Below are positions 14,135 to 62,521 of a stretch of DNA of 64,000 nt, one piece after another. A model generated the notes under the pieces. The model made no database searches. It worked only from the letters and a program-made list of their open reading frames with translations, and was not told the origin of the DNA. Numbering within the stretch: position 1 is the first letter of the stretch; each line of letters begins with the position of its first letter. Both the position numbers and the translations under genes were made by a program. Origin of the DNA: Albula goreensis (Eukaryota > Chordata > Actinopteri > Albuliformes > Albulidae); NCBI GenBank assembly GCA_022829145.1, contig CM040764.1, forward strand, positions 248,001 to 312,000, given 5' to 3'.

Positions 14135-14222
14135 GGTCCAGCAATCAGAAGAGTCCAGCTGTTTGGAACAGAAGAGTCCAGAGAGGAGAGAGCAGTGTAT
14201 GGATGTAAACCCCACAAATAAG
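14135..14222 (+). CDS. NLR gene A, 88-nt N-terminal exon
   Basis: The acceptor is ctctttgcag and the donor is aataag/gtgtgg. The frame after one leading base reads VQQSEESSCLEQKSPERREQ, then CMDVNPTNK. The exon enters in phase 2 (one base completes a codon, as after the 111-nt repeat exons) and leaves in phase 0, which fits the start of the PYD exon. The same exon lies at 62434-62521 in gene B, with five or so base differences. It is a hydrophilic linker with no known fold. Confidence 0.6.
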
Positions 14223-32253: not shown

Positions 32254-33636
32254 CAGTCAACTCCAGAGTTATTGGCACCCCTGACTGGAAATGCAGTAAA
32301 AGTACAATAAAAAAATAAATAATAACATTATTGAGATAAACTCAAAATGCATAGATGCAAAAACATTAGTTTAGTAGTTTATTAATGTTTCTATTATTCC
32401 AAAATCATACTTAATAAATAAACTAATTCATCAAAAAGAAGGATTCATAATTATTGGGTCTTATACTGTTTGACAAGGTTAAGGCACACACTTGGAGGGA
32501 TTTTGGACCATTCCTCTTTGCAGATCCTTTCAAGATCCTTCACATTCTTGGGTTTGTGCTTATCACCTGCCCTGTTCAGTTTAGCCCACAGATTTTCTAT
32601 CAGACTGAGGTCTGGTGACTGAGATGGCCATTGCAGAACATTGATTTTGTTGTCCCAGAAATATTTCTGTGTGGATTCAGAGGTGTGCTTTGGGTCATTG
32701 TCTTGGAAGAAAGTTCACCTACAGCCAAGTCTCGGCCTTCTGGCAGAGGCAACCAGATTGTCAGCCAAACTTGCCTTATACCTGGTGGAATCCATTGAGC
32801 CGTCGATCTTAACCAGTGCCCTTCAACCTCTGGAATGAAAACAGCGCCAAAACATCACTGAACCACCACCATGTTTCACCGTGGGTATGAGGTGACTTTC
32901 CTTGTATGCATCTGTTTTTGGACGCCAAACATGCCGATGGTTTATCTGACCCAAAAAATTTAATTCTGGTCTTATCTGACCACAGCACCTTCGTCCAATA
33001 TTTATTGAAACTATTTTTGGCAAATTGCAAGTGCTTGCTTCTGTGTCTTGGGGTAAGAAAAGGCTTTATTGTTGCATCCCTTCTAAAAATCATGTGGTTA
33101 TGGAGGTGGCATCTGATGGTGCTTTTTGAAACCTGGTGACCCCAAGATGCCACCAAGGCCTGCAATTCCTTCACAGTGATTCTTGGGAAATTTTTTTGCT
33201 TCTATCACCATCCTCCTCCCTATCCTAGGGGGAGAATGCATTTGCGCCCTTTACCTGTCAGGTTTTCAACTGTTCCATGCTTATCAGATTTTTAAAATAA
33301 TTTCCCTGACAGTGCTCAGTGGTATATTTACTCCTTTGTGGATCATCTTGTTGCCATTACCAGAGTTCTGAAGGTCTATGACCATCTGTCTCTTTTAAAC
33401 TGCCATTTTGTTTTGCTTTCTTCATGTTGTTGGTTGGCCAGGGGATTTTTTATGTGTGGTACCTCATTTTTATACCCTAGTGAAACTGGAAGTGATGTAA
33501 TGATACAATATAGTTCCCTAACTCTTAGATGAATTTAAATAAGATGAATTTCATTCCTGGTTTAAATTTGGTAATTTTGTTTCTGATAATCTTTAGGGGT
33601 GCCATTAATTGTGAAACTTTGATCTGGAGGAAACTG
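32254..33636 (-). mobile_element. Tc1-like DNA transposon, decayed
   Basis: The ends are inverted: CAGTCAACTCCAGAGTTATT...GGCACCCC at the left and, complemented, CAGTTTCCTCCAGATC...GGCACCCC at the right. On the minus strand, 33174-32809 encodes the HTH-to-catalytic part (STIRCHLHNHMIFRRDA, KVLWSDKTRIKFFGSDK with the first catalytic Asp). A frame change follows, after which HGGGSVMFWRCFHSRG continues in another frame. The last block, QWPSQSPDLSLIENLW with the final catalytic E region, lies near 32640-32580. About 1.4 kb, inactive. A clean TA duplication was not seen. Confidence 0.85.
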
Positions 33637-36671: not shown

Positions 36672-37389
36672 CATTAAATCCAGCCAAATGATATTATCAG
36701 AAAACATTGAATATGCCAAAATCTATCCTCACACATGAGGGCACCACAAAATGTAGAGGAATTGTACTATTCACCACATGGGAAGCAGAAATATGAGGAT
36801 AATGCTGTTCCTCACAAAGGCTCCAGTTAAATGCAGGTGAAGTGTATGTAGTGCAGGAACAAACAGATAACACAATATGTTGAACTTAACAGTCCCAGCA
36901 CAAGGCACCAATTAAAAGTAATCAATCTCATAAAATGACTTAAGCCATAACCTTTAATTTCAAAAACGTATTAAAATTACAATATTAATGGCAAACCAAC
37001 AGGAATTACCATGTTACAATTATTGATAATTAGTATTGGGGATCTCATCAATTTTGAAGACTTTCTTCTATCAATAGAGTGGCTACAGTCAATGTTTAAG
37101 TGATCATACACAGACAACCTGTTGTAAATACAAAGGCTTCATCATTCACAACGATAAAAATGATAAAAATATGTGTTTGACAGCGACTCTGAGCGTGTGT
37201 AGATGACTTAGTCAGAACACACATAGAGTGTGTGTGTGTGTGTGTGTGTGTTTTTCTCCACATGTTGGGATGGTGTATATTTATTTTGTGTGTGTGTGTG
37301 TGTCCGTGAGACTCTAGCTGGCACAGGGACACTGAGTCATTGTACTGTCACACTCCAAACCCAGCACAGAGGTGTGTGTGTGTGTGTAT
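36672..37389. other. AT-rich stretch with (TG)n microsatellites
   Basis: (TG)n tracts lie at 37229-37251, 37288-37303 and 37371-37390. No gene is seen. Confidence 0.6.
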
Positions 37390-37510
37390 GTGTTTTCTCC
37401 ACAGGCTGGGTTGGTGTATATTCATAGTGTTTGTGTTTTCTCCACAGGCTGGGTTGGTGTCTATTCATCGTGTGTTTGTTTTCTCCACAGGCTGGGTTGG
37501 TATATATTCA
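37390..37510 (+). repeat. 43-bp minisatellite carrying repeated splice acceptors
   Basis: Three copies of 'gttttctccacaggctgggt' followed by 'tggtgtatattcat', with AG ends at 37404, 37447 and 37490 (period 43). It lies directly upstream of the LRR exon and has replaced that exon's normal 5' half. Confidence 0.85.
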
Positions 37511-37511
37511 T

Positions 37512-37644
37512 AGGCCTCAGTCCTGCATTCTCCCCACTCAGAGCTGAGAGCTCTGGACCTCAGAGACAACGAGCTGCAGGATCCAGGAGTGAGAGCGCTC
37601 TCTGCTGGACTGGAGGACCCACTCTGTAAACTACAGAGACTGGG
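37512..37644 (+). CDS. NLR leucine-rich-repeat exon, 5'-truncated (gene A)
   Basis: The frame reads HSELRALDLRDNELQDPGVR, then ALSAGLEDPLCKLQRLG. This is the second half of the standard fish NLR LRR exon (LxxLDLxxNxLxDxGVxxLSxGLxxPxCKLxxL). The donor is GG/GTGAGT, leaving phase 2 as in the family. The first half, which normally carries the first LRR of the exon, is missing. No acceptor nearby gives the LRR frame in phase 2, so the exon may be unusable. Confidence 0.75.
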
Positions 37645-37904: not shown

Positions 37905-37969
37905 TCAGTCCCAGGAGATTCAGGAGTGAGAGTGCTCTGTGCTGCTAAACTGGACACACTTACACTGCG
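37905..37969 (+). pseudogene. LRR exon remnant
   Basis: 'ccaggagattcaggagtgag' followed by 'agtgctctgtgctg' corresponds to the PGDSGVRVLSA part of a fish NLR LRR exon. The following 'GLEDPxC' part is replaced, and the piece ends in GCG/GTAAGT, a donor that then becomes the first unit of the 45-bp repeat. Confidence 0.55.
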
Positions 37970-38175
37970 GTAAGTACAGAGAGTTCCCACATTGCACCTC
38001 ATAGACACACTGCTGTAAGTACAGAGAGTTTCCACACTGCACCTCATAGACACACTGCTGTAAGTACAGAGAGTTTCCACACTGCGCCTCATAGACACAC
38101 TGCTGTAAGTACAGAGAGTTTCCACACTGCGCCTCATAGACACACTGCTGTAAGTACAGAGAGTTTCCACACTCT
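37970..38175 (+). repeat. 45-bp minisatellite carrying repeated splice donors
   Basis: Units start with GTAAGTACAGAGAG at 37970, 38015, 38060, 38105 and 38150, exactly 45 bp apart. Each contains 'tttccacactgcacctcata' or close variants. The donor of the LRR remnant has been multiplied. Confidence 0.92.
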
Positions 38176-44401: not shown

Positions 44402-44534
44402 GTCTGTTGATCTGGGTCAGAAACCTCTCATGGTCCAACCTGGACTGATACATTCCAGACTCCTTGGTTTCCAAAATGAGTGTCTCTGAGGACCCAAAGA
44501 CCAGCACTGGAACCTCCAGCCCTGACAGCAAGAG
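44402..44534 (+). CDS. NLR gene B, first coding exon
   Basis: Acceptor gtggttacag at 44401, then ATG at 44476 with an AAAATGA context. It encodes MSVSEDPKTSTGTSSPDSKR (the last codon is split) and ends AAGAG/GTATAA at 44534 in phase 2. Fish NLRs of this family begin with a similar short leader (MSLSGE..., Ser-rich, ending in K/R), which supports the start. Bases 44402-44475 would be 5' UTR. Confidence 0.65.
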
Positions 44535-47500
44535 GTATAAATGCATTAATCAGATATATAATTATATAAATCGATTAATCAGGAATAAAACCTTGAATTT
44601 TGTGTATATCTGCAGTGCATAATCGGTGGGCATATACTGTATGTCACCCATTCTTAAGAACTGAGATAAGCCACCTCCAACCAGAAAAAACCTTACAAAA
44701 AACATTACAAGAAACCTTAAAAAAACAAATTGAATTGAATTGTGTGGTAAAAATTGCAATTTGTGTTTTATATACAGAATAGATCTAAAATCATTTTTGA
44801 AGTTCTTTAATTTTTTAACCTCTAAACCGGAGGATTGTCAAAAAATACATACAAGAGACAAGAATTAAAATTTGTATTTAAAGCCTTTCAATTTGGAAAC
44901 TGACTGTATATTATTCATAACATGCTTGTGAAAATCAAGTGTTTGAAACTTTGGTTTAAAATGTCTCAGACCTTAAAAAAATAATTTTACAGTGAAGTAT
45001 GAGTTAATTTAATTTGTTACTTTAAGATTTTTTAAATAGTGTACACAATGAAAGATGAGAGACTTTTCTTGAAATCTTCATTGTGGGAACTACTCTTTGG
45101 CAAATGGTTGGATTTGAAATACACTCTACCTGTAATTTGTGTTCACTAAAACTTGAACGAATGTTCTCAATTTTAAAAGTAAATTTGCACAAATAAATAT
45201 GCACTCGTGAATGTAAAAATCTGTTCCTCTGTGTGGTGAGTTAGTGACGGGTCAATGGAGCCACCACCCAAATTAAGAGGAGAATCCAAGGTGAACAGGT
45301 TCACATTTATACTGCTGTTTCTTTATTCCTCACTCTTACAGTCTACAGTCTGATGTAGGTAGAGTGGGGACACAGTTCCTCCGTACTTAAAAAACGTTTA
45401 ATTTTATTGTTTTCCAAAGGAATTCATCTGAATCTGTGTTCATGCTGTGAACTGTGTAAAAAGGACTAAACCTTTTCATCACACTCTTCATTGTACTCAA
45501 CAAACTTTTTTTTTAATTTGCATCCCTGATTTGATTGATCTGTACTCAACAGCCTTTAACAAATTTCTGAAATTAAGGCTTAATCGCGAACAAGTTGTGC
45601 AAAATGTAGAACGATTGCTAATTAGTAGATTTAAAGAAGAGATAAAGATTTGCTCTTCATTTTGGATATCACTTATTTAACTGCACAATAAAATAAAATA
45701 TTCAATCCATGTGCTGTGAGTTAGAGCTGCAATAAGAGGATGAGGTTAACTGAAAGCTCTGTCTCCATGTGCTGTGAGTTAGAGCTGCAGTAAGAGGATG
45801 AGGTTAACTGGAAGCTCTGTCTCCATGTGCTGTGAGTTAGAGCTGCAGTAAGAGGATGAGGTTAACTGGAAGCTCTGTCTCCATGTGCTGTGAGTTAGAG
45901 CTGCAGTAAGAGGATGAGGTTAACTGGAAGCTTTGTCTCCATGTGCTGTGAGTTGGAGCTGCAGTAAGAGGATGAGGTTAACTGGAAGCTCTGTCTCCAT
46001 GTGCTGTGAGTTAGAGCTGCAGTGAGAGGATGAGGTTAACTGGAAGCTCTGTCTCCATGTGCTGTGAGTTAGAGGCAATAAGAGGATGAGGTTAACTGGA
46101 AGCTCTGTCTCCATGTGCTGTGAGTTAGAGCTGCAGTAAGAGGATGAGGTTAACTGGAAGCTTTGTCTCCATGTGCTGTGAGTTGGAGCTGCAGTTAGAG
46201 TAGTTTAAGGTGAGAGATTGAAGTGCTTTCTCAGCTACAAGGTGATATTCTTACTCTTCTTCCTTCTTGTTGCCTCTGCACCTCATGTTCCCACAGTGTT
46301 TTATAAGTCAGTATTATATATTGCTGTACCTAACAACCTGTAGAAATTGAGAACTTGCAAGGAAAATAGCTTTTCCCACAGTTTTACTTATCACCAAGGT
46401 AATTCTGGAACATAACCATTCTTAGTTGGGCAGTATGAGAATAAGCTGCGTTTATGTCAGCAAATAGTTGGTGGCACCCTGAACTGCTGGGCTGTTCTCA
46501 CCAAATCACTTTTTAAAACAAATGTGCAATGTCTCTATTCTCTAATAGGATCCAGAGTGAAAGAGCAGGGTCACCTGTACCCAGCTGTCTGTCAATACAG
46601 AGTGACCAGTCAATGGAACAACCCATACAATTCAGTGGAGGATTTACAGGTGGTCCAAGGTAAGAAAATGGGTAGATATTTACCCTTCATTATCATTATG
46701 TTTATCTGTCAATGGCAACATTAAAGTGTAGGTGGGCTGTGCCATGTTATATTCAGGTGTATGACAGTGTACCATTTCACATTCAGGTGCAGGTTAGGAA
46801 TGCTGTGTCAAACTCAGGTGTAGGTGGGGTGTACCACATCACATTCAGGTGTGAAAGATGCAGTAAGAGGATGGGGTTAACTGGAAGCTCTGTCTCCATG
46901 TGCGGTGAGTTAGAGCGGCAGTGAGAGGATGAGGTTAACTGGAAGCTTTGTCTCCATGTGCTGTGAGTTAGAGCTGCAGTAAGAGGATGAGTTAACTGGG
47001 GAAGCTTTGTCTCATGTGCTGTGAGTTGGAGCTGCAGTTAGAGTAAGAGGGATGAGGTTAACTGGAAGCTTTGTCTCCATGTGCTGTGAGTTGGAGCTGC
47101 AGTTAGAGTAGTTTAAGGTGAGAGATTGAAGTGCTTTCTCAGCTACAAGGTGATATTCTTACTCTTCTTCCTTCTTGTTGCCTCTGCACCTCATGTTCCC
47201 ACAGTGTTTTATAAGTCAGTATTATATATTGCTGTACCTAACAACCTGTAGAAATTGAGAACTTGCAAGGAAAATAGCTTTTCCCACAGTTTTACTTATC
47301 GCCAAGGTAATCCTGGAACATAACCATTCTTAGTTGGGCAGTGTGAGAATAAGCTGCGTTTATGTCAGCAAATAGTTGGTGGCACCCTGAACTGCTGGGC
47401 TATTCTCACCAAATCACTTTTTAAAACAAATGTGCAATGTCTCTATTCTCTAATAGGATCCAGAGTGAAAGAGCAGGGTCACCTGTACCCAGCTGTCTGT

Positions 47501-50500
47501 CAATACAGAGTGACCAGTCAATGGAACAACCCATACAATTCAGTGGAGGATTTACAGGTGGTCCAAGGTAAGAAAATGGGTAGATATTTACCCTTCATTA
47601 TCATTATGTTTATCTGTCAATGGCAACATTAAAGTGTAGGTGGGCTGTGCCATGTTATATTCAGGTGTATGACAGTGTACCATTTCACATTCAGGTGCAG
47701 GTTAGGAATGCTGTGTCAAACTCAGGTGTAGGTGGGGTGTACCACATCACATTCAGGTGTGAAAGATGCAGTAAGAGGATGGGGTTAACTGGAAGCTCTG
47801 TCTCCATGTGCGGTGAGTTAGAGCGGCAGTGAGAGGATGAGGTTAACTGGAAGCTTTGTCTCCATGTGCTGTGAGTTGGAGCTGCAGTAAGAGGATGAGG
47901 TTAACTGGAAGCTCTGTCTCCATGTGCTGTGAGTTAGAGCTGCAGTGAGAGGATGAGGTTAACTGGAAGCTCTGTCTCCATGTGCTGTGAGTTAGAGCTG
48001 CAATAAGAGGATGAGGTTAACTGGAAGCTCTGTCTCCATGTGCTGTGAGTTAGAGCTGCAGTAAGAGGATGAGGTTAACTGGAAGCTTTGTCTCCATGTG
48101 CTGTGAGTTGGAGCTGCAGTTAGAGTAGTTTAAGGTGAGAGAGATTGAAGTGCTTTCTCAGCTACAAGGTGATATTCTTACTCTTCTTCCTTCTTGTTGC
48201 CTCTGCACCTGATGTTCCCACAGTGTTTTATAAGTCAGTATTATATATTGCTGTACCTAACAACCTGTAGAAATTGAGAACTTGCAAGGAAAATAGCTTT
48301 TCCCACAGTTTTACTTATCACCAAGGTAATTCTGGAACATAACCATTCTTAGTTGGGCAGTATGAGAATAAGCTGCGTTTATGTCAGCAAATAGTTGGTG
48401 GCACCCTGAACTGCTGGGCTGTTCTCACCAAATCACTTTTAAAACAAATGCAATGTCTCTATTCTCTAATAGGATCCAGAGTGAAAGAGCAGGGTCACCT
48501 GTACCCAGCTGTCTGTCAATACAGAGAGACCAGTCAATGGAACAACCCATACAATTCAGTGGAGGATTTACAGGTGGTCCAAGGTAAGAAAATGGGTAGA
48601 TATTTACCCTTCATTATCATTATGTTTATCTGTCAATGGCAACATTAAAGTGTAGGTGGGCTGTGCCATGTTATATTCAGGTGTATGACAGTGTACCATT
48701 TCACATTCAGGTGCAGGTTAGGAATGCTGTGTCAAACTCAGGTGTAGGTGGGGTGTACCACATCACATTCAGGTGTGAAAGATGCAGTAAGAGGATGGGG
48801 TTAACTGGAAGCTCTGTCTCCATGTGCGGTGAGTTAGAGCGGCAGTGAGAGGATGAGGTTAACTGGAAGCTCTGTCTCCATGTGCTGTGAGTTGGAGCTG
48901 CAAAGAGGATGGGGTTAACTGGAAGCTCTGCTCTGTGAGTTCCAGTGAGAGGCGGTGTTAAGAAGCTCTGTCTCCATGTGCTGTGAGTTAGAGAGGAGGA
49001 TGAGGTTAACTGGAAGCTTTGCTTTGTCTCCATGTGCTGTGAGTTGGAGCTGCAGTTAGAGTAGTTTAAGGTGAGAGATTGAAGTGCTTTCTCAGCTACA
49101 AGGTGATATTCTTACTCTTCTTCCTTCTTGTTGCCTCTGCACCTCATGTTCCCACAGTGTTTTATAAGTCAGTATTATATATTGCTGTACCTAACAACCT
49201 GTAGAAATGGAGAACTTGCAAGGAAAATAGCTTTTCCCACAGTTTTACTTATCACCAAGGTAATTCTGGAACATAACCATTCTTAGTTGGGCAGTATGAG
49301 AATAAGCTGCGTTTATGTCAGCAAATAGTTGGTGGCACCCTGAACTGCTGGGCTGTTCTCACCAAATCACTTTTTAAAACAAATGTGCAATGTCTCTATT
49401 CTCTAATAGGATCCAGAGTGAAAGAGCAGGGTCACCGGTACCCAGCTGTCTGTCAATACAGAGTGACCAGTCAATGGGACAACCCATACAATTCAGTGGA
49501 GGATTTACAGGTGGTCCAAGGTAAGAAAATGGGTAGATATTTACCCTTCATTATCATTATGTTTATCTGTCAATGGCAAGATTAAAGTGTAGGTGGGCTG
49601 TGCCATATTATATTCAGGTGTATGACAGTGTACCATTTCACATTCAGGTGCAGGTTAGGAATGCTGTGTCAAACTCAGGTGGAGGTGGGTGTACCACACA
49701 TTCAGATTCAGGTGTGAGAGAGCTCTGCAGTGAGTTAGAGCATGAGGTTAGGTTAACTGGAAGCTCTGTCTCCATGTGCTGTGAGTGAGTTAGAGCTGGA
49801 AGCTCTGTCTAAGAGGATGAGCTGGTTAACTGGAAGCTCTGTCTCCATGTGCTGTGAGTTGAGTTAGAGCTGCAGTAAGAGGATGAGGTTAACTGGAAGC
49901 TTTGTCTCCATGTGCTGTGAGTTGGAGCTGCAGTTAGAGTAGTTTAAGGTGAGAGATTGAAGTGCTTTCTCAGCTACAAGGTGATATTCTTACTCTTCTT
50001 CCTTCTTGTTGCCTGCCTCTGCACTCATGTTCCCACAGTGTTTTATAAGTCAGTATTATATATTGCTGTACCTAACAACCTGTAGAAATTGAGAACTTGC
50101 AAGGAAAATAGCTTTTCCCACAGTTTTACTTATCACCAAGGTAATTCTGGAACATAACCATTCTTAGTTGGGCAGTATGAGAATAAGCTGCGTTTATGTC
50201 AGCAAATAGTTGGTGGCACCTGAACTGCTGGGCTGTTCTCACCAAATCACTTTTTAAAACAAATGTGCAATGTCTCTATTCTCTAATAGGATCCAGAGTG
50301 AAAGAGCAGGGTCACCTGTACCCAGCTGTCTGTCAATACAGAGTGACCAGTCAATGGAACAACCCATACAATTCAGTGGAGGATTTACAGGTGGTCCAAG
50401 GTAAGAAAATGGGTAGATATTTACCCTTCATTATCATTATGTTTATCTGTCAATGGCAACATTAAAGTGTAGGTGGGCTGTGCCATGTTATATTCAGGTG

Positions 50501-53500
50501 TATGACAGTGTACCATTTCACATTCAGGTGCAGGTTAGGAATGCTGTGTCAAACTCAGGTGTAGGTGGGGTGTACCACATCACATTCAGGTGTGAAAGAT
50601 GCAGTAAGAGGATGGGGTTAACTGGAAGCTCTGTCTCCATGTGCGGTGAGTTAGAGCGGCAGTGAGAGGATGAGGTTAACTGGAAGCTCTGTCTCCATGT
50701 GCTGTGAGTTGGAGCTGCAGTTAGAGTAGTTTAAAGTGAGAGATTGAAGTGCTTTCTTAGCTACAAGGTGATATTCTTACTCTTCTTCCTTCTTGTTGCC
50801 TCTGCACGTCATGTTCCCACAGTGTTTTATAAGTCAGTATTATATATTGCTGTACCTAACAACCTGTAGAAATTGAGAACTTGCAAGGAAAATAGCTTTT
50901 CCCACAGTTTTACTTATCACCAAGGTAATTCTGGAACATAACCATTCTTAGTTGGGCAGTATGAGAATTAGCTGCGTTTATGTCAGCAAATAGTTGGTGG
51001 CACCCTGAACTGCTGGGCTGTTCTCACCAAATCACTTTTTAAAACAAATGTGCAATGTCTCTATTCTCTAATAGGATCCAGAGTGAAAGAGCAGGGTCAC
51101 CTGTACCCAGCTGTCTGTCAATACAGAGTGACCAGTCAATGGGACAACCCATACAATTCAGTGGAGGATTTACAGGTGGTCCAAGGTAAGAAAATGGGTA
51201 GATATTTACCCTTCATTATCATTATGTTTATCTGTCAATGGCAAGATTAAAGTGTAGGTGGGCTGTGCCATGTTATATTCAGGTGTATGACAGTGTACCA
51301 TTTCACATTCAGGTGCAGGTTAGAATGCTGTGTCAAACTCAGGTGGAGGTGGGGTGTACCACATCACATCACATTCCAGGTGTGAAAGATGCAGTAAGAG
51401 GATGGGGTTAACTGGAAGCTCTGTCTCCATGTGCTGTGAGTTAGAGCGGCAGTGAGAGGATGAGGTTAACTGGAAGCTTTGTCTCCATGTGCTGTGAGTT
51501 GGAGCTGCAGTTAGAGTAGTTTAAGGTGAGAGATTGAAGTGCTTTCTCAGCTACAAGGTGATATTCTTACTCTTCTTCCTTCTTGTTGCCTCTGCACGTC
51601 ATGTTCCCACAGTGTTTTATAAGTCAGTATTATATATTGCTGTACCTAACAACCTGTAGAAATTGAGAACTTGAAAGGAAAATAGCTTTTCCCACAGTTT
51701 TACTTATCGCCAAGGTAATTCTGGAACATAACCATTCTTAGTTGGGCAGTATGAGAATTAGCTGCGTTTATGTCAGCAAATAGTTGGTGGCACCCTGAAC
51801 TGCTGGGCTATTCTCACCAAATCACTTTTAAAACAAATGTGCAATGTCTCTATTCTCTAATAGGATCCAGAGTGAAAGAGCAGGGTCACCTTTTACCCAG
51901 CTGTCTGTCAATACAGAGTGACCAGTCAATGGGACAACCCATACAATTCAGTGGAGGATTTACAGGTGGTCCAAGGTAAGAAAATGGGTAGATATTTACC
52001 CTTCATTATCATTATGTTTATCTGTCAATGGCAACATTAAAGTGTAGGTGGGGCTGTGCCATGTTATATTCAGGTGTATGACAGTGTACCATTTCACATT
52101 CAGGTGCAGGTTAGTAAGAATGCTGTGTCTCCAGGTGTAGGTGGGGTGTACCACATCACATTCAGGTGTGAAAGATGCAGTAAGAGGATGGGGTTAACTG
52201 GAAGCTCTGTCTCCATGTGCGGTGAGTTAGAGCGGCAGTGAGAGGATGAGGTTAACTGGAAGCTCTATCTCCATGTGCTGTGAGTTGGAGCTGCAGTTAG
52301 AGTAGTTTAAAGTGAGAGATTGAAGTGCTTCCTTAGCTACAAGGTGATATTCTTACTCTTCTTCCTTCTTGTTGCCTGTGCACGTCATGTTCCCACAGTG
52401 TTTTATAAGTCAGTATTATATATTGCTGTACCTAACAACCTGTAGAAATTGAGAACTTGCAAGGAAAATAGCTTTTCCCACAGTTTTACTTATCACCAAG
52501 GTAATTCTGGAACATAACCATTCTTAGTTGGGCAGTATGAGAATTAGCTGCGTTTATGTCAGCAAATAGTTGGTGGCACCCTGAACTGCTGGGCTGTTCT
52601 CACCAAATCACTTTTTTAAAACAAATGTGCAATGTATCTATTCTCTAATAGGATCCAGAGTGAAAGAGCAGGGTCACCTGTACCCAGCTGTCTGTCAATA
52701 CAGAGTGACCAGTCAATGGGACAACCCATACAATTCAGTGGAGGATTTACAGGTGGTCCAAGGTAAGAAAATGGGTAGATATTTACCCTTCATTATCATT
52801 ATGTTTATCTGTCAATGGCAACATTAAAGTGTAGGTGGGCTGTGCCATGTTATATTCAGGTGTATGACAGTGTACCATTTCACATTCAGGTGCAGGTTAG
52901 GAATGCTGTGTCAAACTCAGGTGTAGGTGGGTGTACCACATCACATTCAGGTGTGAAAGATGCAGTAAGAGGATGGGGTTATCTGGAAGCTCTGTCTCCA
53001 TGTGCGGTGAGTTAGAGCGGCAGTGAGAGGATGAGGTTAACTGGAAGCTCTATCTCCATGTGCTGTGAGTTGGAGCTGCAGTTAGAGTAGTTTAAAGTGA
53101 GAGATTGAAGTGCTTTCTTAGCTACAAGGTGATATTCTTACTCTTCTTCCTTCTTGTTGCCTCTGCACCTCATGTTCCCACAGTGTTTTATAAGTCAGTA
53201 TATTATATTGCTGTACCTAACAACCTGTAGAAATGGAGAACTTGCAAGGAAAATAGCTTTTCCCACAGTTTTACTTATCACCAAGGTAATTCTGGAACAT
53301 AACCATTCTTAGTTGGGCAGTATGAGAATTAGCTGCGTTTATGTCAGCAAATAGTTGGTGGCACCCTGAACTGCTGGGCTGTTCTCACCAAATCACTTTT
53401 TAAAACAAATGTGCAATGTCTCTATTCTCTAATAGGATCCAGAGTGAAAGAGCAGGGTCACCTGTACCCAGCTGTCTGTCAATACAGAGTGACCAGTCAA

Positions 53501-56500
53501 TGGGACAACCCATACAATTCAGTGGAGGATTTACAGGTGGTCCAAGGTAAGAAAATGGGCAGATATTTACCCTTCATTATCATTATGTTTTATCTGTCAA
53601 TGGCAAGATTAAAGTGTAGGTGGGCTGTGCCATATTATATTCAGGTGTATGACAGTGTACCATTTCACATTCAGGTGCCGGTTAGGAATGCTGTGTCAAA
53701 CTCAGGTGGAGGTGGGGTGTACCACATCACATTCAGGTGAGAGATGCAGTAAGAGGATGAGGTTAACTGGAAGCTCTGTCTCCATGTGCTGTGAGTTAGA
53801 GCTGCAATAAGAGGATGAGGTTAACTGGAAGCTCCGTCTCCAAGTGCTGTGAGTTAGAGCTGCAGTAAGAGGAAGAGGATAACTGGTAGCTCTGTCTCCA
53901 TGTGCTGTGAGTTAGAGCTGCAATAAGAGGATGAGGTTAACTGGAAGCTCTGTCTCCATGTGCTGTGAGTTAGAGCTGCAGTAAGAGGATGAGGTTAACT
54001 GGAAGCTTTGTCTCCATGTGCTGTGAGTTGGAGCTGCAGTTAGAGTAGTTTAAGGTGAGAGATTGAAGTGCTTTCTCAGCTACAAGGTGATATTCTTACT
54101 CTTCTTCCTTCATGTTGCCTCTGCACCTCATGTTCCCACAGTGTTTTATAAGTCAGTATTATATATTGCTGTACCTAACAACCTGTAGAAATTGAGAACT
54201 TGCAAGGAAAATAGCTTTTCCCACAGTTTTACTTATCACCAAGGTAATTCTGGAACATAACCATTCTTAGTTGGGCAGTATGAGAATTAGCTGCGTTTAT
54301 GTCAGCAAATAGTTGGTGGCACCCTGAACTGCTGGGCTGTTCTCACCAAATCACTTTTTAAAACAAATGTGCAATGTATCTATTCTCTAATAGGATCCAG
54401 AGTGAAAGAGCAGGGTCACCTGTACCCAGCTGTCTGTCAATACAGAGTGACCAGTCAATGGGACAACCCATACAATTCAGTGGAGGATTTACAGGTGGTC
54501 CAAGGTAAGAAAATGGGTAGATATTTACCCTTCATTATCATTATGTTTATCTGTCAATGGCAACATTAAAGTGTAGGTGGGCTGTGCCATGTTATATTCA
54601 GGTGTATGACAGTGTACCATTTCACATTCAGGTGCAGGTTAGGAATGCTGTGTCAAACTCAGGTGTAGGTGGGGTGTACCACATCACATTCAGGTGTGAA
54701 AGATGCAGTAAGAGGATGGGGTTATCTGGAAGCTCTGTCTCCATGTGCGGTGAGTTAGAGCGGCAGTGAGAGGATGAGGTTAACTGGAAGCTCTATCTCC
54801 ATGTGCTGTGAGTTGGAGCTGCAGTTAGAGTAGTTTAAAGTGAGAGATTGAAGTGCTTTCTTAGCTACAAGGTGATATTCTTACTCTTCTTCCTTCTTGT
54901 TGCCTCTGCACCTCATGTTCCCACAGTGTTTTATAAGTCAGTATATTATATTGCTGTACCTAACAACCTGTAGAAATGGAGAACTTGCAAGGAAAATAGC
55001 TTTTCCCACAGTTTTACTTATCACCAAGGTAATTCTGGAACATAACCATTCTTAGTTGGGCAGTATGAGAATTAGCTGCGTTTATGTCAGCAAATAGTTG
55101 GTGGCACCCTGAACTGCTGGGCTGTTCTCACCAAATCACTTTTTAAAACAAATGTGCAATGTCTCTATTCTCTAATAGGATCCAGAGTGAAAGAGCAGGG
55201 TCACCTGTACCCAGCTGTCTGTCAATACAGAGTGACCAGTCAATGGGACAACCCATACAATTCAGTGGAGGATTTACAGGTGGTCCAAGGTAAGAAAATG
55301 GGTAGATATTTACCCTTCATTATCATTATGTTTATCTGTCAATGGCAAGATTAAAGTGTAGGTGGGCTGTGCCATATTATATTCAGGTGTATGACAGTGT
55401 ACCATTTCACATTCAGGTGCCGGTTAGGAATGCTGTGTCAAACTCAGGTGGAGGTGGGGTGTACCACATCACATTCAGGTGTGAGAGATGCAGTAAGAGG
55501 ATGAGGTTAACTAGAAGCTCTGTCTCCATGTGCTGTGAGTTAGAGCTGCAATAAGAGGATGAGGTTAACTGGAAGCTCCGTCTCCAAGTGCTGTGAGTTA
55601 GAGCTGCAGTAAGAGGAAGAGGATAACTGGTAGCTCTGTCTCCATGTGCTGTGAGTTAGAGCTGCAATAAGAGGATGAGGTTAACTGGAAGCTCTGTCTC
55701 CATGTGCTGTGAGTTAGAGCTGCAGTAAGAGGATGAGGTTAACTGGAAGCTTTGTCTCCATGTGCTGTGAGTTGGAGCTGCAGTTAGAGTAGTTTAAGGT
55801 GAGAGATTGAAGTGCTTTCTCAGCTACAAGGTGATATTCTTACTCTTCTTCCTTCATGTTGCCTCTGCACCTCATGTTCCCACAGTGTTTTATAGTCAGT
55901 ATTATATATTGCTGTACCTAACAACCTGTAGAAATTGAGAACTTGCAAGGAAAATAGCTTTTCCCAAAGTTTTACTTATCACCAAGGTAATTCTGGAACA
56001 TAACCATTCTTAGTTGGGCAGTATGAGAATAAGCTGTGTTTATGTCAGCAAATAGTTGGTGGCACCCTGAACTGCTGGGCTGTTCTCACCAAATCACTTT
56101 TTAAAACAAATGTGCAATGTCTCTATTCTCTAATAGGATCCAGAGTGAAAGAGCAGGGTCACCTGTACCCAGCTGTCTGTCAATACAGAGTGACCAGTCA
56201 ATGGGACAACCCATACAATTCAGTGGAGGATTTACAGGTGGTCCAAGGTAAGAAAATGGGTAGATATTTACCCTTCATTATCATTATGTTTATCTGTCAA
56301 TGGCAAGATTAAAGTGTAGGTGGGCTGTGCCATATTATATTCAGGTGTATGACAGTGTACCATTTCACATTCAGGTGCCGGTTAGGAATGCTGTGTCAAA
56401 CTCAGGTGGAGGTGGGGTGTACCACATCACATTCAGGTGTGAGATGCAGTAAGAGGATGAGGTTAACTGGAAGCTCTGTCTCCATGTGCTGTGAGTTAGA

Positions 56501-59500
56501 GCTGCAATAAGAGGATGAGGTTAACTGGAAGCTCCGTCTCCAAGTGCTGTGAGTTAGAGCTGCAGTAAGAGGAAGAGGATAACTGGTAGCTCTGTCTCCA
56601 TGTGCTGTGAGTTAGAGCTGCAATAAGAGGATGAGGTTAACTGGAAGCTCTGTCTCCATGTGCTGTGAGTTAGAGCTGCAGTAAGAGGATGAGGTTAACT
56701 GGAAGCTTTGTCTCCATGTGCTGTGAGTTGGAGCTGCAGTTAGAGTAGTTTAAGGTGAGAGATTGAAGTGCTTTCTCAGCTACAAGGTGATATTCTTACT
56801 CTTCTTCCTTCATGTTGCCTCTGCACCTCATGTTCCCACAGTGTTTTATAAGTCAGTATTATATATTGCTGTACCTAACAACCTGTAGAAATTGAGAACT
56901 TGCAAGGAAAATAGCTTTTCCCAAAGTTTTACTTATCACCAAGGTAATTCTGGAACATAACCATTCTTAGTTGGGCAGTATGAGAATAAGCTGTGTTTAT
57001 GTCAGCAAATAGTTGGTGGCACCCTGAACTGCTGGGCTGTTCTCACCAAATCACTTTTTAAAACAAATGTGCAATGTCTCTATTCTCTAATAGGATCCAG
57101 AGTGAAAGAGCAGGGTCACCTGTACCCAGCTGTCTGTCAATACAGAGTGACCAGTCAATGGGACAACCCATACAATTCAGTGGAGGATTTACAGGTGGTC
57201 CAAGGTAAGAAAATGGGTAGATATTTACCCTTCATTATCATTATGTTTATCTGTCAATGGCAAGATTAAAGTGTAGGTGGGCTGTGCCATATTATATTCA
57301 GGTGTATGACAGTGTACCATTTCACATTCAGGTGCCGGTTAGGAATGCTGTGTCAAACTCAGGTGGAGGTGGGGTGTAACACATCACATTCAGGTGTGAG
57401 AGATGCAGTAAGAGGATGAGGTTAACTGGAAGCTCTGTCTCCATGTGCTGTGAGTTAGAGCTGCAATAAGAGGATGAGGTTAACTGGAAGCTCCGTCTCC
57501 AAGTGCTGTGAGTTAGAGCTGCAGTAAGAGGAAGAGGATAACTGGTAGCTCTGTCTCCATATGCTGTGAGTTAGAGCTGCAGTAAGAGGATGAGATTAAC
57601 TGGAAGCTCTGTCTCCATGTGCTGTGAGTTAGAGGTGCAGTAAGAGGATGGGGTTAACTGGAAGCTCTGTCTCCATGTTCTGTGAGTTAGAGACTCAGTC
57701 AGAGTCTTTTTAGGTTGGAGACGAAAGTGATCCTTTAGTTGTAGCCATGCTTCAATTTAGTAAAATAGCTATGTCCATTTAATAAGTGTGCATTTTATAA
57801 ATCTGGGCAGAACATTGTAGAATGTAAACAGCTCTTCCTTACTTTAAATCTTAAAAGGGGAATTGCTTCTTCCAAACTTTCTCATTTAAGAAACAACCAA
57901 GTTCATTGTTTAGAATGAATCTGCTTTGTTGGACCGTTGATGATGCCAATTTTCAACATTTTTCACCAAATTGTCTGTAAAAACAAATACGCAATGTCTG
58001 TTTCGGCTTTTTGGGTCCAGCAGAAAGAGCAGGGTCTCCTGTACCCAGCTGTCTTAGAGCTGCAGGAAGAGGATGACATGAAGACTTTCTCAGGATGGTG
58101 GAAATTTACCATCATCTCAGGATGGTTGTAGATGGTTGTTTGTGGTTTAGTGAAAGTGTTTTAGCTGTGTCAGGCAGCTTGAATCCAGTGGCATCATACC
58201 TCACTCCCTCCTTCAGCATGTTAGATCGATTCAAGTGACCCACACCCTCTGTTTTTGTGAGGCCCTGTTTGGGCTGGCTCAGTTTGAAGCCTGGAGTAGA
58301 CCTATCGTCAGTAGACTGGTGCTGTGTAGCTTCTAGGTATGAGAATGACATACATTTCTGCCAGTCAACTCGCTGATGCTGAAGCCTGTCAGGTAAATTC
58401 CCTTATGACCTGTTGAGGTGAATATTAGAGAGGAATGAACATGCAAACAAGAGCTTTCAATCAACACAAGTTTAATACAAATGCGCATTTGGGAATCAGC
58501 CTCCTCTGAGATCTGATTCAAAGTACATAAATAATCACTCATCTTTTATACTGTTTTTATGAATACATAATCTTCATGGTAGGTGTGGAGATCCCACCTC
58601 TAACATTTCATTGGTCAACAGTTACTTCAATGTCCTTTAGCTATTTCTTTTTAATGAGTCTTCTGTTCTTGCAAAAAGTTATTTTTCCTCACCAGACGAT
58701 GGCAATCCGCCCAATTTCAGTTACTCCCCAATACAATTTTCTACGATTACAATTAGTTCTTCTTTCTACTCCGAAGGACAACTTATTCTCATGGGAGTGC
58801 TCAACAACCTAGAGAGTTGTTACCTCTTATCTTTATGCACACACACACACACACACATTCTTCTTTACTTAGGTCTACAGGAAATTTCCACCCCACCTGT
58901 CTATTATACAGAAATTACATTTCAACTTCACATTCAATGGCTTTATACATTTTATATACATAACCTCTATAATCTACATAACCAACTATAATTTCTCTAA
59001 CAAGCCGACACATATTTTTTTTAAATTCTATGATGTAGGATAATAACAAAATTAAGCCAAGTGATCAGCACAGATCACAAGATGAAAACGTTGTTCCATT
59101 TGGTATGTACCAAATTATTGTGTTCTTCTTCGCTCACTGCACAGCTTAAGGGAAGCTCAAACCCCTCAATAAACATGTTTCAAAAGATTGATTCATGAGA
59201 GACCCTATTAAATGGAACAAGAAATTTGGTTTTGCAAAATAGCTTAAACATCCATCCACATTTGAACTTATGCAGATAAAAAAATGTTTAGGCTAATAAA
59301 CAATAGCAACCATAACAACAACAATATTGTCATTGACAGACATATTGAACTTAAGCAATGAAAGAAACTCATAAAAACTGATTTTCACCTGCTTAACTGT
59401 TGACTGACAATTGAGAAATTGTTCACATCTCTTGTAGTTTCTGTGTCCTTTGTCCAAATGCTGAGGGTGTACTTAGGTGTAATTAGACAAGTTTAGCTAG

Positions 59501-62500
59501 CCACAACTTGGTTTGTGTGAGACATTGCCAAGTACTGCAGAACATGACGAGAGTTATCTGACAGTTTTCTAGAGTCAAGTATGTGGTCTTCATATGTATC
59601 AAGCATGTGGTCTTCAAGTTAGTAACAACTGCATTCGTCATACATAGTGTAAGCCAGCTATCTGCTGGTACAGATTAAGCCATGGTCTTACGCTGTCTGT
59701 AATTTTTAATATGGCTTGATAAAAGGTTTTATTTTCCTGAAGGGAAGTATTTTTAAGTCAGTTGTTTGTAACTGATTGTGACGGAGAACTGATTTATATT
59801 TTATTCTCCGCCCCAAATATCGGCGTCGGCCGCGGGATGGGGAAATTTAAACCGTGACGCGTGTATTAGGGGGGAAAAGAGATAGGAAAAAACATCAAAC
59901 TTTGTGTATGTATGTTCATTTATTTTTTTTGGTTTAAAAGTGCTGTTTGTTCGTTCAGGGTGGATATTGGCGTTTGTTGTCTGGGGGGGAAAAAATTTAC
60001 TTTTCAAATGTTACCGTTTTTAAATAGCGAACTACATATTCATTTAGCGGGTGCACACGTTATCTGTTTTGTTAGTTAGCTATGTTCACATTTCACTTTC
60101 ATCATTCATCACTCGAACTTTCCGTAATACATAAATCCCGGTGTACTCACTTGTGCGTCTGTGTCTGTTTCACTGGGGTGTCAAAGGAGCACACGGGGGA
60201 AAACATGGTGGTTTTAAGGATTGTGGGTAGAGTAGTTCATGTTGGTTTGTAAGGTAGGGGGAATTGTTTCAATGTTTTGTGTTATGTTATTGTATTGGTG
60301 ATGGGGGAAAATGTATTTGTTTAATGTATTGTTTGTATATACTTTTGTTGTTTGATCATGTAAAGAATTGATAGATTATTGTTCCTTTGTAAGTTAATTG
60401 ATTTTATTTTTGGGATGGTATGGTCGGGAGGGGGTAATTGTATTTAAGGCCCTCCTGCTCTTTATTAAAAAAAGGCTGTGGGTGAGGCAGGACCCGGGAA
60501 AGCCAAAAAGGACATAATTGGGAACTGATTGCCCCAAATGTTTTTTGTAAATATTCACTAATAATCAGGACTTTATTTTGTGTACAGTTTTTTTTTTTTT
60601 GATTTATCACTATAATAAAACCACCATTCACCCTATTTTTCTGTGTTGGCCTCTTGTTGACCGCTCGCCATCCTCACACTGATACCACAAAAATAATAGC
60701 CCAGTTTTGTCAGTGTCACATGTGTCTGTTTCCCCAGACACTGCTGGGATATTTGCTATTAATATGAGCAACCTTTATCACTCTGGAAGCTCCACTCATA
60801 GCTGGAGTATGAAGATCTTACTCTTGACTTTTCTCTTGACTGCCCTGTTTTAATCAACGCCTGCATTTTGAGACACTTCCCTATTTTATCAGTTTATTTA
60901 AAATGTTCAACACCCCATGCTACAATGACTGGAGGTTTCCTTTGGTGAGACAATGTTAGCACAGCCTAAACAGGGAAAAATAGACTGTAAACCAATAAAA
61001 TTATCTTGTCTCATTGCTCTGTAGTGCCTTCTACTGGCAAACTGGGCAGCAAATTGGAGGAGCCACATGCATGGGCAAAAGGTTCACAGCATGGGGCTGA
61101 GAACATCATTTGAGAAAACACCCTCACTCCCTGTTGGATGAGGCATGGGCAGGAATGAGTTCCATTAAGAACTCGTAATCATGAAATGGGGTTGTGACAT
61201 TCTGAGCAAAGCCATCAATGTATTTCATGTCTTACACACACCATACATATCCACACAAGCACATTAACACTATTGATGATATTATGGTGGCTTGTTTAGT
61301 CCAAACAATAGACAACAGAGCCAGTATTCTATGCTTTCTCAACTCTGCTACTCTCTCAAAAATGCTATGTGGTAGTTTCATGCTAAATAGTTTCATATTA
61401 GTGTCATGCTAGTTACCTATTCTAGTTCTGTCCTATTTATTAGTGCACTTGCAGCGGTTGCTAATACAGTGCCACAGAGTAGTAAATGTAAGCACAGTGT
61501 TTGCTGTTGCCAATGATGAAACCACATAAAACACAGGAATATGGTATAGGTTCTTGCCGCTATTAGCTTTACTGGTAATGTACCTCTCTTTCATAAATTA
61601 TAGAGACTAATATAGGGACATGTCTTTTACTTACTTATACAGTGTAACAACATCACAGTTAAACCATTCATTTCACAGAAGTGTGGTAAAGATATTTACT
61701 GCTGTAATGTTCGGTTTGTTAGCTCACCACTTAGCTTGGTAGGTGTTTGGTGATAAAGAATGGAAGTCTATCACTCTGTGCAAGTAAGATCCACCCATCC
61801 ATGGTGTAGGGATGAAACAGGCCTTCCTCTTGTGGAAATCTGTGGGTAAATCTGTAATGATAAACCAGTGAGCTGAACTGGCTGTTAGGTAGCTAAATAC
61901 TGAGGATACTGCATCACCCCATTTAACAATTTGTTTCATTCTATTTTAGAGAAGACAGAAGGAAAATACATGGTTCACCAGCTGGCTATGTGTTTTTCCT
62001 GCTTAGCTAACACCACCTCCTTCCCCTGCAGAGCGTACAGCATGCTATAATATTTAAGCAGGGTCTAGCTGCAGCCACTCCAAACCTCGGCACACAGGCT
62101 CCACCTCAGAGAGGCCCTGCTGCATGTGGAGCCCTGCATCGGCTTGCAACTTTTGTTTCATGCCCCAAAGCCTATTTCATTGGTTAATTATATGGTTAGG
62201 TACGTTTTAACCACAGGTTCACTGTTTGATATTAGTATGAGTGACCCAACCTACCCCCAAATGCCCCAGCCCCACAAACCCCCCACCCCCTGCGTGGGTG
62301 TACCTGGTTTTACAAGCCAGAGGTCTAATGATTGAGCTTCTCTGAAACATTTTAATGCACTCTTCTTATGTATTTTTTTCTTAATTCACTGTTTTTCTGT
62401 CGGAACTCTGATTCCTCACAAACCACTTTGCAGGGTCCAGCAATCAGAAGAGTCCAGCTGTCTGGAACAGAAGAGTCCAGAGAGGAGAGAGCAGTGTATG

Positions 62501-62521
62501 GATGTGAACCTCACAAAAAAG
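44402..62521 (+). CDS. NLR gene B, N-terminal part with a 13-exon tandem array
   Basis: Gene-level entry (partial; continues beyond the window). Exons: 44402-44534 (5' UTR plus start codon), thirteen 111-nt exons between 46549 and 57204, then 62434-62521. All internal borders of the array are phase 2, so any number of array exons joins the first exon to the 88-nt exon in frame. The array peptide (SERAGSPVPSC, SDQSMxQP) is the repeat that precedes PYD or FISNA in fish NLRs. Its function is not established, and a flexible or oligomerising N-terminal extension is inferred. No FISNA-NACHT exon is found before 64000, although in gene A it lies 1.24 kb after the 88-nt exon. Confidence 0.65.
44535..45709. 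other. First intron of gene B
   Basis: AT-rich, no gene. It leads into the 58-bp minisatellite. Confidence 0.5.
45710..46205 (+). repeat. 58-bp minisatellite, ~8.5 copies
   Basis: The unit is 'agctgcagtaagaggatgag', 'gttaactggaagctctgtct', 'ccatgtgctgtgagttag', period 58. Copies differ by a few bases, and one (46070) has a short deletion. Blocks of one to six such units lie in every intron of the exon array. Confidence 0.95.
46549..46659 (+). CDS. Array exon 1 of NLR gene B
   Basis: Acceptor ttctctaatag, donor CCAAG/GTAAGA. The frame after one base begins IQSERAGSPVPSCLSIQSDQ and ends in SGGFTGGPR, 37 residues. Residue 23 is Glu (ATGGAACAACC). This is the reference form; exons 2 and 5 are identical. 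Confidence 0.8.
47457..47567 (+). CDS. Array exon 2 of NLR gene B
   Basis: Identical to exon 1 over all 111 bases. Splice sites intact. Confidence 0.8.
48473..48583 (+). CDS. Array exon 3 of NLR gene B
   Basis: One base differs from exon 1 (AGT to AGA), changing Ser18 to Arg. Splice sites intact. The downstream intron carries a more scrambled minisatellite (48890-49020). Confidence 0.8.
49410..49520 (+). CDS. Array exon 4 of NLR gene B
   Basis: Residue 23 is Gly (ATGGGACAACC). A silent change CCT to CCG lies at Pro9. Splice sites intact. Confidence 0.8.
50290..50400 (+). CDS. Array exon 5 of NLR gene B
   Basis: Same sequence as exon 1 (Glu23). Splice sites intact. It returns to the Glu form after the Gly form of exon 4, which suggests exchange between units. 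Confidence 0.8.
51075..51185 (+). CDS. Array exon 6 of NLR gene B
   Basis: Gly23 form. Exons 8-13 are identical to it. Splice sites intact. Confidence 0.8.
51864..51975 (+). pseudogene. Array exon 7 of NLR gene B, 112 nt with frame change
   Basis: CACCTGTACCC of the other copies is CACCTTTTACCC here, a net gain of one base, so the exon is 112 nt and shifts the frame after residue 9. Acceptor and donor are intact. As neighbouring exons are phase 2 on both sides, skipping this one exon keeps the message in frame. Confidence 0.75.
52652..52762 (+). CDS. Array exon 8 of NLR gene B
   Basis: Gly23 form. The intron just upstream has 'aatgtatctattc' instead of 'aatgtctctattc', a marker shared only with exon 10. 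Confidence 0.8.
53436..53546 (+). CDS. Array exon 9 of NLR gene B
   Basis: Gly23 form, splice sites intact. The following intron holds a five-unit minisatellite block with a divergent unit (gaagaggataactggtagct), shared with the introns after exons 11, 12 and 13. Confidence 0.8.
54394..54504 (+). CDS. Array exon 10 of NLR gene B
   Basis: Gly23 form with the upstream 'aatgtatctattc' marker of exon 8. First half of the second 1742-bp dimer. Confidence 0.8.
55179..55289 (+). CDS. Array exon 11 of NLR gene B
   Basis: Gly23 form. Second half of the dimer, corresponding to exon 9. Confidence 0.8.
56137..56247 (+). CDS. Array exon 12 of NLR gene B
   Basis: Gly23 form. The upstream intron has 'cccaaagttttac' and 'aagctgtgtttat', shared only with exon 13. 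Confidence 0.8.
57094..57204 (+). CDS. Array exon 13 of NLR gene B
   Basis: Gly23 form, last intact copy. The next copy downstream (57985) is the decayed relic. Confidence 0.8.
57400..57715 (+). repeat. 58-bp minisatellite, 3' edge of the array
   Basis: About five units, the last ones more divergent. It passes into the segmental duplication copy B at 'agagtctttttaggttggag', exactly as at 10148 in gene A. Confidence 0.9.
57985..58095 (+). pseudogene. Relic of the NLR repeat exon, copy B
   Basis: Same recombinant structure as at 10440-10545: repeat-exon 5' half, then minisatellite-like 'tagagctgcaggaagaggat'. The acceptor is lost. The shared break point shows that the relic formed before the A/B duplication. 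Confidence 0.7.
58387..59002. mobile_element. Probable solo LTR fossil (616 bp)
   Basis: The insertion starts TGTCAGGTAAATTC and ends CTCTAACA (TG...CA), flanked by AGCC at 58383-58386 and 59003-59006. The paralogous site in gene A (about 10829, 'gaagccgatacatt') lacks it. It contains a (CA)n tract at 58839-58856. The LTR-retroelement family is not resolved. It is younger than the A/B duplication. Confidence 0.55.
59003..59776. other. Intron sequence of gene B shared with gene A
   Basis: Matches 10829-11530 with small indels. No gene. Confidence 0.6.
59777..60678. mobile_element. Solo LTR fossil (902 bp)
   Basis: The ends are TGTGACGGAGAACTG and CGCCATCCTCACA (TG...CA), with the 5-bp direct repeat CTGAT at 59772-59776 and 60679-60683. 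The empty site 'gtacctgataccac' is present at about 11525-11538 in gene A. An AATAAA-like signal lies near 60613. The length, TG/CA ends and 5-bp duplication fit a Ty3/gypsy-like or BEL-like LTR. It has no internal coding part and is younger than the A/B duplication. Confidence 0.8.
60684..62433. other. Intron sequence of gene B shared with gene A
   Basis: Closely matches 11530-12996 and 13848-14134. It holds no separate gene. The 71-codon minus-strand frame at 61939-61724 is present in both copies but is not conserved as protein. Confidence 0.6.
62434..62521 (+). CDS. NLR gene B, 88-nt exon after the array
   Basis: Acceptor actttgcag, donor AAAAAG/GTGTGA. The frame reads VQQSEESSCLEQKSPERREQ, then CMDVNLTKK. 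It enters in phase 2 and so joins array exons in frame, and it leaves in phase 0. Counterpart of 14135-14222. Confidence 0.6.

What the first reader, a model, noticed from the sequence alone, without database searches (positions are those of the whole stretch)
46549..57204. Thirteen tandem, frame-neutral NLR exons
Thirteen 111-nt exons, each with intact acceptor (ttctctaatag) and donor (AAG/GTAAGA), are repeated at 784-1016 bp. Every border is phase 2 and all but one are a multiple of three, so any number can be included or skipped without changing the frame of the NLR. The first exon also ends in phase 2. This could give one gene a large set of N-terminal length variants, about 37 residues per step. 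Repeats of this type (SPVPSC...SDQSM) are known before PYD/FISNA in fish NLRs, but an array of 13 near-identical copies in one gene is unusual.
Basis: partly seen in the sequence, partly recalled or inferred. Interest (0 to 1): 0.88.

Follow-up and report, generated by a model that had tools for sequence, protein, structure and literature searches.

The report
Repeated peptide exons in fish NLR
A fish immune-receptor gene carries thirteen near-identical copies of one small exon, a known kind of repeat in fish NLR genes that is also amplified at other places in this genome; one copy is frame-broken, and nothing yet shows that the copies are mixed and matched in RNA.

Summary
Thirteen copies of one small exon lie at 46549-57204. 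Twelve are 111 nt and copy 7 is 112 nt; all 13 have intact splice sites, spaced 784-1016 bp. They join in frame to an ATG exon (44476-44534), a linker exon (62434-62521), and a PYD exon and an open FISNA-NACHT exon just outside the window.

The interpretation needs trimming. (1) Single-exon N-terminal peptide repeats are a published feature of fish NLRs (Howe 2016). (2) The array is not alone: the exon core occurs 452 times in this genome, and fetched loci hold 15 (6 broken), 12, 10, 8 and 5 copies. (3) Copy 7 is a +1 frameshift with a stop inside itself, so a model with all 13 copies stops at codon 261, before PYD and NACHT. (4) No transcripts could be examined; symmetric phases follow from exon duplication.

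Not in the passages I read: the introns hold a 58-bp minisatellite, and in one sister array the spacing changes in exact 58-bp steps. This fits minisatellite-linked unequal crossing-over, an exon-level VNTR. Verdict: new member of a known kind.

The parts
44476..44534 (+). Exon 1: ATG, codes MSVSEDPKTSTGTSSPDSK, ends in phase 2
   Evidence: the same 59-nt exon with AGCAAGAG/GT donor was seen at 7 other loci of this genome
45706..46200 (.). 58-bp minisatellite (8.6 copies) before the first array exon
46549..46659 (+). Array exon copy 1 (111 nt, phase 2-2)
47457..47567 (+). Array exon copy 2 (111 nt)
48473..48583 (+). Array exon copy 3 (111 nt)
49410..49520 (+). Array exon copy 4 (111 nt)
50290..50400 (+). 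Array exon copy 5 (111 nt)
51075..51185 (+). Array exon copy 6 (111 nt)
51864..51975 (+). Array exon copy 7 (112 nt): +1 frameshift, stop inside itself if included
52652..52762 (+). Array exon copy 8 (111 nt)
53436..53546 (+). Array exon copy 9 (111 nt)
54394..54504 (+). Array exon copy 10 (111 nt)
55179..55289 (+). Array exon copy 11 (111 nt)
56137..56247 (+). Array exon copy 12 (111 nt)
57094..57204 (+). Array exon copy 13 (111 nt)
46859..57704 (.). 58-bp minisatellite blocks after each of the 13 exons (2-6 cores each)
57996..58054 (+). Vestige of a 14th copy (first part only, no usable splice pair)
62434..62521 (+). Linker exon, 88 nt (VQQSEESSCLEQKSPERREQCMDVNLTKK), phase 2 to 0
   Evidence: seen at 5 further places. 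PYD (C24:312600-312840) and FISNA-NACHT (from C24:313620) follow outside the window

Best explanation
This is the N-terminal peptide-repeat region of a fish-specific NLR gene (FISNA-NACHT type with a pyrin exon). One symmetric 111-nt exon and its intron, which holds a 58-bp minisatellite, have been multiplied head to tail. The likely mechanism is unequal crossing-over and gene conversion between the near-identical units, helped by the minisatellite, with homogenisation inside each gene (inferred). Because the exon is phase 2-2, gain or loss of whole units keeps the frame, so the locus would behave as an exon-level VNTR that sets the length of an N-terminal tail at 37 residues per copy. The default expectation is that all copies are spliced in, since all carry essentially the same sites (inferred). 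In the assembled haplotype copy 7 would then truncate the protein, so this haplotype is probably a null allele or young pseudogene, unless copy 7 is skipped or its extra base is an assembly error. Shown: exon anatomy, frame, neighbours, copies elsewhere, presence of the minisatellite beside the exons. Inferred: transcription, inclusion, the recombination mechanism, population length variation, function of the tail.
For: Exons and splice sites. In-frame joining to exon 1, linker, PYD and FISNA-NACHT: open for 1182 residues when copy 7 is left out, and open with no array exon. Pfam PYRIN 4.5e-13, FISNA 3.4e-34, NACHT 8.5e-34. FISNA-NACHT dN/dS 0.39 against the C7:40.63 gene, one pair only. Published N-terminal repeats of about 30 residues, each on a single exon, in zebrafish NLRs. 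452 genomic matches of the exon core, 0 in the reversed control. Other arrays. Within-locus exon differences 0-2.73 per 111 nt against 8.66 between loci. Minisatellite at all 11 repeat-exon loci tested. At C7:34.33 Mb all 9 spacings are 205, 263 or 321 bp, i.e. 58-bp steps, and the minisatellite runs up to the acceptor. In the window the 785-bp units have 2 cores, the 957-958-bp units 5 and the 1016-bp unit 6.
Against: No RNA data, so inclusion is unproven. In the window the units spaced 880, 908 and 937 bp do not fit whole 58-bp steps from 785, and the 880-bp unit has only 2 cores. Between loci pN/pS of the repeat exon is 1.77 (0.92 and 0.83 in the two other frames), so purifying selection on the peptide is not shown. 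In the window copies frame 2 is open as well as the coding frame, so openness there is weak evidence. Copy 7 breaks the frame if all copies are included. Some minisatellite places listed (C5, C6) have no exact exon core in the capped listing, so the link may not be exclusive. Copy number in other individuals is unknown.
Confidence: 0.7

Rival explanations
1. The array is an isoform generator: exons are skipped or included in varying number, and copy 7 is routinely skipped or used as a poison exon, giving many N-terminal lengths from one gene.
For: Symmetric phases; the frame stays open if copy 7 is left out; human NLRs have a precedent for splicing of modular frame-preserving exons, NLRP3 exon 5 (PMC6642158: abstract, and one Results section).
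Against: All copies have essentially identical splice sites, so no copy-specific regulation is visible; symmetric phase is expected for any duplicated exon of this kind; no transcripts examined.
Confidence: 0.15
2. The array gene is a pseudogene or null allele, and the array is just a tandem repeat that happens to hold exons. This overlaps with the best explanation, which leaves the state of this haplotype open.
For: Copy 7 frameshift; the upstream paralogue at 10.0-17.5 kb has in-frame stops in its NACHT exon; broken copies occur in other arrays: 1 of 4 at C8:35.98, 1 of 8 at C17, 6 of 15 at C7:36.32, 2 of 4 at C7:39.45; nearly 10% of the zebrafish sequences, 145 of 1513 FISNA-NACHT, have early stops (PMC11192531, passage).
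Against: PYD and FISNA-NACHT exons of the array gene are open and dN/dS is 0.39 in the one comparison made; 12 of 13 copies are 111 nt with intact splice sites.
Confidence: 0.35
3. Copy number, or the extra base in copy 7, is an assembly artefact.
For: Near-identical units of about 0.8 kb can be mis-assembled; the extra base sits in a run of T.
Against: Units carry private differences and different minisatellite numbers, so the array is not one unit copied by the assembler; similar arrays with other sequences exist elsewhere, and some of those also hold 110- or 112-nt copies.
Confidence: 0.12

Closest known systems
N-terminal peptide repeats of fish NLR-C / NLR-B30.2 genes (Howe et al. 2016, PMC4852459; groups 2-4)
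   Same: Repeat peptide of about 30 residues, each on one exon, in the N-terminal extension of FISNA-NACHT genes; 'extensively duplicated' in groups 2b and 3b; two main types (passages, section 2.2).
   Different: Here 13 near-identical copies of 37 residues each (111 nt), a 58-bp minisatellite in the introns and a frame-broken copy; I saw none of these in the passages and section read. Copy numbers per zebrafish gene were not in the text I saw; the alignment supplement was not read.
LPA kringle IV-2 repeat
   Same: A copy-number-variable repeat inside a gene that sets protein isoforms: 5.6-kb unit, >40 isoforms (abstract of PMC6314250 in a search listing).
   Different: Different gene and protein; variation is shown between people there, only predicted here.
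Modular LRR exons of human NLRs (NLRP3 exon 5 skipping, PMC6642158)
   Same: Frame-preserving repeated exons in an NLR, skippable without frame loss (abstract and one section).
   Different: LRR exons with splicing shown by RNA; here N-terminal, near-identical copies, no RNA.
Tandem exon duplications such as obscurin (PMC9013439)
   Same: Many homologous tandem exons of similar length, with repeated elements in the introns between them (case-study section).
   Different: Unrelated gene; older, more diverged duplicates (about 79% identity in the region quoted).

Membership tests
Fish NLR-C / NLR-B30.2 family | FISNA next to NACHT in one large exon | tested here: met
   PF14484 3.4e-34, PF05729 8.5e-34 in L009:2583-4451
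Fish NLR-C / NLR-B30.2 family | N-terminal peptide repeats, one per exon (groups 2-4) | tested here: met
   13 exons that join in frame to the NLR when copy 7 is left out; feature as stated. Kinship of the peptide to the zebrafish repeats was not tested by sequence.
Fish NLR-C / NLR-B30.2 family | Death-fold exon (groups 1 and 2) | tested here: met
   PF02758 4.5e-13, L009:1489-1869
Fish NLR-C / NLR-B30.2 family | LRR exons after the NACHT exon | tested here: inconclusive
   LRR reading frames at L010:7733-8236 and L012:8480-8896, about 13 and 34 kb after the NACHT exon; whether they belong to this gene is not shown
Fish NLR-C / NLR-B30.2 family | C-terminal B30.2 exon (only in some groups) | tested here: inconclusive
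   Crude motif scan of C24:311001-351000 found none; no profile search was run for it
Exon-level VNTR (LPA KIV-2 type) | Tandem in-frame near-identical exon units | tested here: met
   12 of 13 units in frame
Exon-level VNTR (LPA KIV-2 type) | Copy number differs between individuals | not testable with these tools
   one assembly only
Alternatively spliced tandem exon cluster | Transcripts with different exon subsets | not testable with these tools
   no transcript data held

The most novel reading that the evidence does not exclude
A 58-bp minisatellite and a short symmetric exon travel as one compound repeat through this fish's NLR genes (452 exon cores; 3705 minisatellite cores). The compound repeat acts as a fast, frame-neutral exon VNTR, so each NLR gene and each individual carries its own N-terminal repeat number. 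Frame-broken copies act as poison exons, or are tolerated because they are skipped.
Probability: 0.25. Interest if true: 0.62.

Novelty: new member of a known kind. Interest (0 to 1): 0.36.

Why it matters
Zebrafish differ strongly in their NLR repertoires (PMC11192531, abstract in a listing and passages), and I saw no function given for the N-terminal repeats in the passages read. If exon copy number varies by minisatellite-linked recombination, repeat number becomes a measurable, heritable trait of each NLR gene, and tail length can be tested against inflammasome assembly. It also warns that short-read or automatic gene models may miscount such exons (inference).

Tried and rejected
Rejected: that the array is the only large one in this genome. 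Rejected: that all 13 copies can be used together in frame. Rejected: that the array is a simple assembler copy of one unit (private differences). Considered: the peptide as a known domain. Pfam gave only one sub-cut-off hit to three joined repeats (pof12 beta-propeller, 19.2 bits against a cut-off of 27), and no solved structure matched a profile of 12 repeats at E up to 1. Literature: among the titles and abstracts listed, I saw no paper on minisatellites or splicing of these repeats beyond Howe 2016 and the 2024 eLife paper; searches: 20 of 47 listed; 13 of 13; 12 of 1,796; motif letters, 15 of 34; 3 of 3; 1 of 1; 10 of 104. Selection on the repeat exon was inconclusive. An earlier count said that the stop caused by copy 7 lies in exon 8; that is wrong. 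It lies in copy 7 itself (translation; codon 261).

Led nowhere: a complete census of array sizes. The pattern search lists only 100 of 452 places and a second pattern did not complete. The FISNA family count did not complete. Structure prediction of the repeat was not accepted.
Full report
WHAT IS THERE. The window is G000:C24:248001-312000 of a 932-Mb genome; the FISNA domain marks it as fish. A script found 13 exons with intact acceptor and donor between 46549 and 57204; 12 of 13 are 111 nt and copy 7 is 112 nt. Ten of the 13 fall into two identical classes (7 and 3 copies) that differ by one base. Starts are spaced 784-1016 bp. Read in phase 2 the main versions code R-IQSERAGSPVPSCLSIQSDQSM(E/G)QPIQFSGGFTGGP. 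A partial copy without a usable splice pair sits at 57996-58054, and a similar vestige at 10456-10499 in an upstream paralogue.

THE GENE. Exon 1 (44476-44534, ATG, 59 nt) ends in phase 2, and a linker exon (62434-62521, 88 nt) takes phase 2 and ends in phase 0. Beyond the window lie a PYD exon (L009:1600-1840) and a FISNA-NACHT exon (from L009:2620). Joined in a script, the model without copy 7 is open for 1182 residues and the model with no array exon is open too; the model with all 13 stops at codon 261, which lies inside copy 7 (translation). Pfam finds PYRIN, FISNA, NACHT, winged-helix and HD2 domains. The 59-nt exon 1 with the same AGCAAGAG/GT junction was seen at 7 further loci, and the linker exon at 5 further places, one of them the upstream paralogue; in the C7:40.63 gene the linker looks one base shorter. 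The FISNA-NACHT exon compared with that of the C7:40.63 gene has dS 0.081, dN 0.031, ratio 0.39. LRR reading frames occur about 13 and 34 kb after the NACHT exon, with reading frames that look like mobile elements between (not tested); that the LRRs belong to this gene is not shown. A crude motif scan saw no B30.2 up to C24:351000.

HOW USUAL IS IT. Howe et al. 2016 (PMC4852459; [quoted passage not shown] In this genome a 26-base core of the exon, up to 3 mismatches, occurs 452 times, against 0 for the reversed control (100 places listed). Besides the 8 short loci I fetched 25 stretches of 10 kb (L009-L033), chosen by likeness to the window exon, by clusters in the listings, or as flanks, so not a random sample. 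Larger arrays found besides the window: C7:40.62-40.64 Mb, 12 intact copies, plus one without a donor and one partial, with exon 1, linker, a PYD that matches in two frames, and FISNA-NACHT; C7:36.32-36.33 Mb, 15 hits, of which 9 are 111 nt, 3 are 110 nt and 3 lack the normal donor; C7:34.33 Mb, 10 copies, all 111 nt, plus one weak hit; C17:3.89 Mb, 8 copies, of which 7 are 114 nt and one 110 nt, plus one weak 99-nt hit; C7:37.73 Mb, 5 plus one fragment; C7:39.45 Mb, 4, of which 2 are 111 nt. At C7:36.32, 34.33, 37.73 and 39.45 an exon-1 match was seen (70-90% identity; only a weak 40% match at C17), but NACHT exons were not in the stretches fetched. In the first nine loci, window included, 57 profile hits gave 50 with a splice pair, 47 of them 111 nt; one of the 50 (L014:5856) overlaps another exon and is spurious, and 7 had no good pair. 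Thirteen is therefore near the top of what I saw, not alone.

HOW IT MAY ARISE. Exons within a locus differ by 0-2.73 bases per 111 on average, between loci by 8.66, range 3-16 (43 exons of nine loci; the 112-nt rows and 4 exons of a second type were dropped). Each locus thus has largely its own homogenised version. The introns of the window array hold a 58-bp minisatellite: the 784-789-bp units have 2 cores, the 957-958-bp units 5 and the 1016-bp unit 6, which fits whole 58-bp steps; the 880, 908 and 937-bp units (2, 3 and 4 cores) do not. At C7:34.33 Mb all 9 spacings are 205, 263 or 321 bp, and in the stretch printed the minisatellite runs up to the acceptor. The minisatellite was found at all 11 repeat-exon loci tested, and its 40-base core (up to 2 mismatches) occurs 3705 times in the genome, reversed control 0 (100 places listed). 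Some listed minisatellite places, such as C5:1.26 Mb and C6, have no exact exon core in the capped listing, so the link may not be exclusive. Unequal crossing-over and conversion between such units is the simplest account; this is inference.

WHAT COPY 7 MEANS. If all copies are spliced in, this haplotype gives a 260-residue product that stops before PYD and NACHT. A null allele or young pseudogene is a serious possibility: the upstream paralogue is broken, several other arrays hold broken copies, and nearly 10% of the zebrafish sequences (145 of 1513 FISNA-NACHT) have early stops (PMC11192531, passage). Skipping of copy 7 would leave an open frame but is not shown. An assembly error in the T run is possible.

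SELECTION. The array exon differs less between units (0.0083) than its upstream (0.0181) and downstream (0.0268) flanks, but the numbers are small. Against window copy 1, one exon per other locus is 0.91-0.95 identical, its ungapped 60-base flanks 0.33-0.93; at 2 of 8 loci the upstream flank is slightly more alike than the exon. Between loci pN/pS in the coding frame is 1.77, from 35 synonymous against 229 non-synonymous differences summed over non-independent pairs; the other two frames give 0.92 and 0.83. So constraint on the peptide is not demonstrated; relaxed or diversifying change is equally open. Over the 50 rows the coding frame is open in 47, the other two frames in 1 and 14; in the window copies a second frame is open too, so this bears mostly on the other loci.

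VERDICT. The NLR assignment holds. The claim of a large set of splice variants is untested and is weakened by copy 7 and by the uniform splice sites. The better reading is an exon-level VNTR of a known NLR repeat.

Noticed in passing
window 10004-17507: Upstream paralogue of the array gene: minisatellite, vestigial repeat exon, linker exon, a PYD-like stretch (87% identical DNA; the reading frame tested gave no Pfam hit) and a FISNA-NACHT exon about 93% identical, with in-frame stops at 16895-16897 and 17342-17344 and a 39-bp tandem repeat (16906-17203, 7.6 copies). No exon array was found in it.
   Followed up: partly
end of L032 and L031:1-2303 (C7:34331768-34334303): Ten 111-nt repeat exons with introns of 94, 152 or 210 bp, differing by exact 58-bp steps; the minisatellite runs up to the acceptor in the stretch looked at.
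   Followed up: partly
L028/L029 (C7:36323606-36334561): Array of 15 repeat-exon hits with recurring spacings, as if in a higher-order repeat; 3 copies are 110 nt and 3 lack the normal donor.
   Followed up: no
L022:2944-6578 (C7:40.64 Mb): In the 12-copy C7 gene the linker exon looks one base shorter and the PYD matches in two different frames, so this gene may be damaged between array and NACHT.
   Followed up: no
window 397-1485: Two tandem-repeat blocks (397-636 and 1261-1485) whose units look like reverse complements, with matching 21-bp repeats inside (685-725, 1201-1241): perhaps a large palindromic element (judged by eye).
   Followed up: no
window 28956-30860 and 32809-33201, minus strand: Reading frames that look like retroelement and transposase fragments (recognised from memory, not tested).
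   Followed up: no
window 37384-37513 and 37962-38173: 43-bp (3 copies) and 45-bp (4.7 copies) tandem repeats between the two NLR genes.
   Followed up: no
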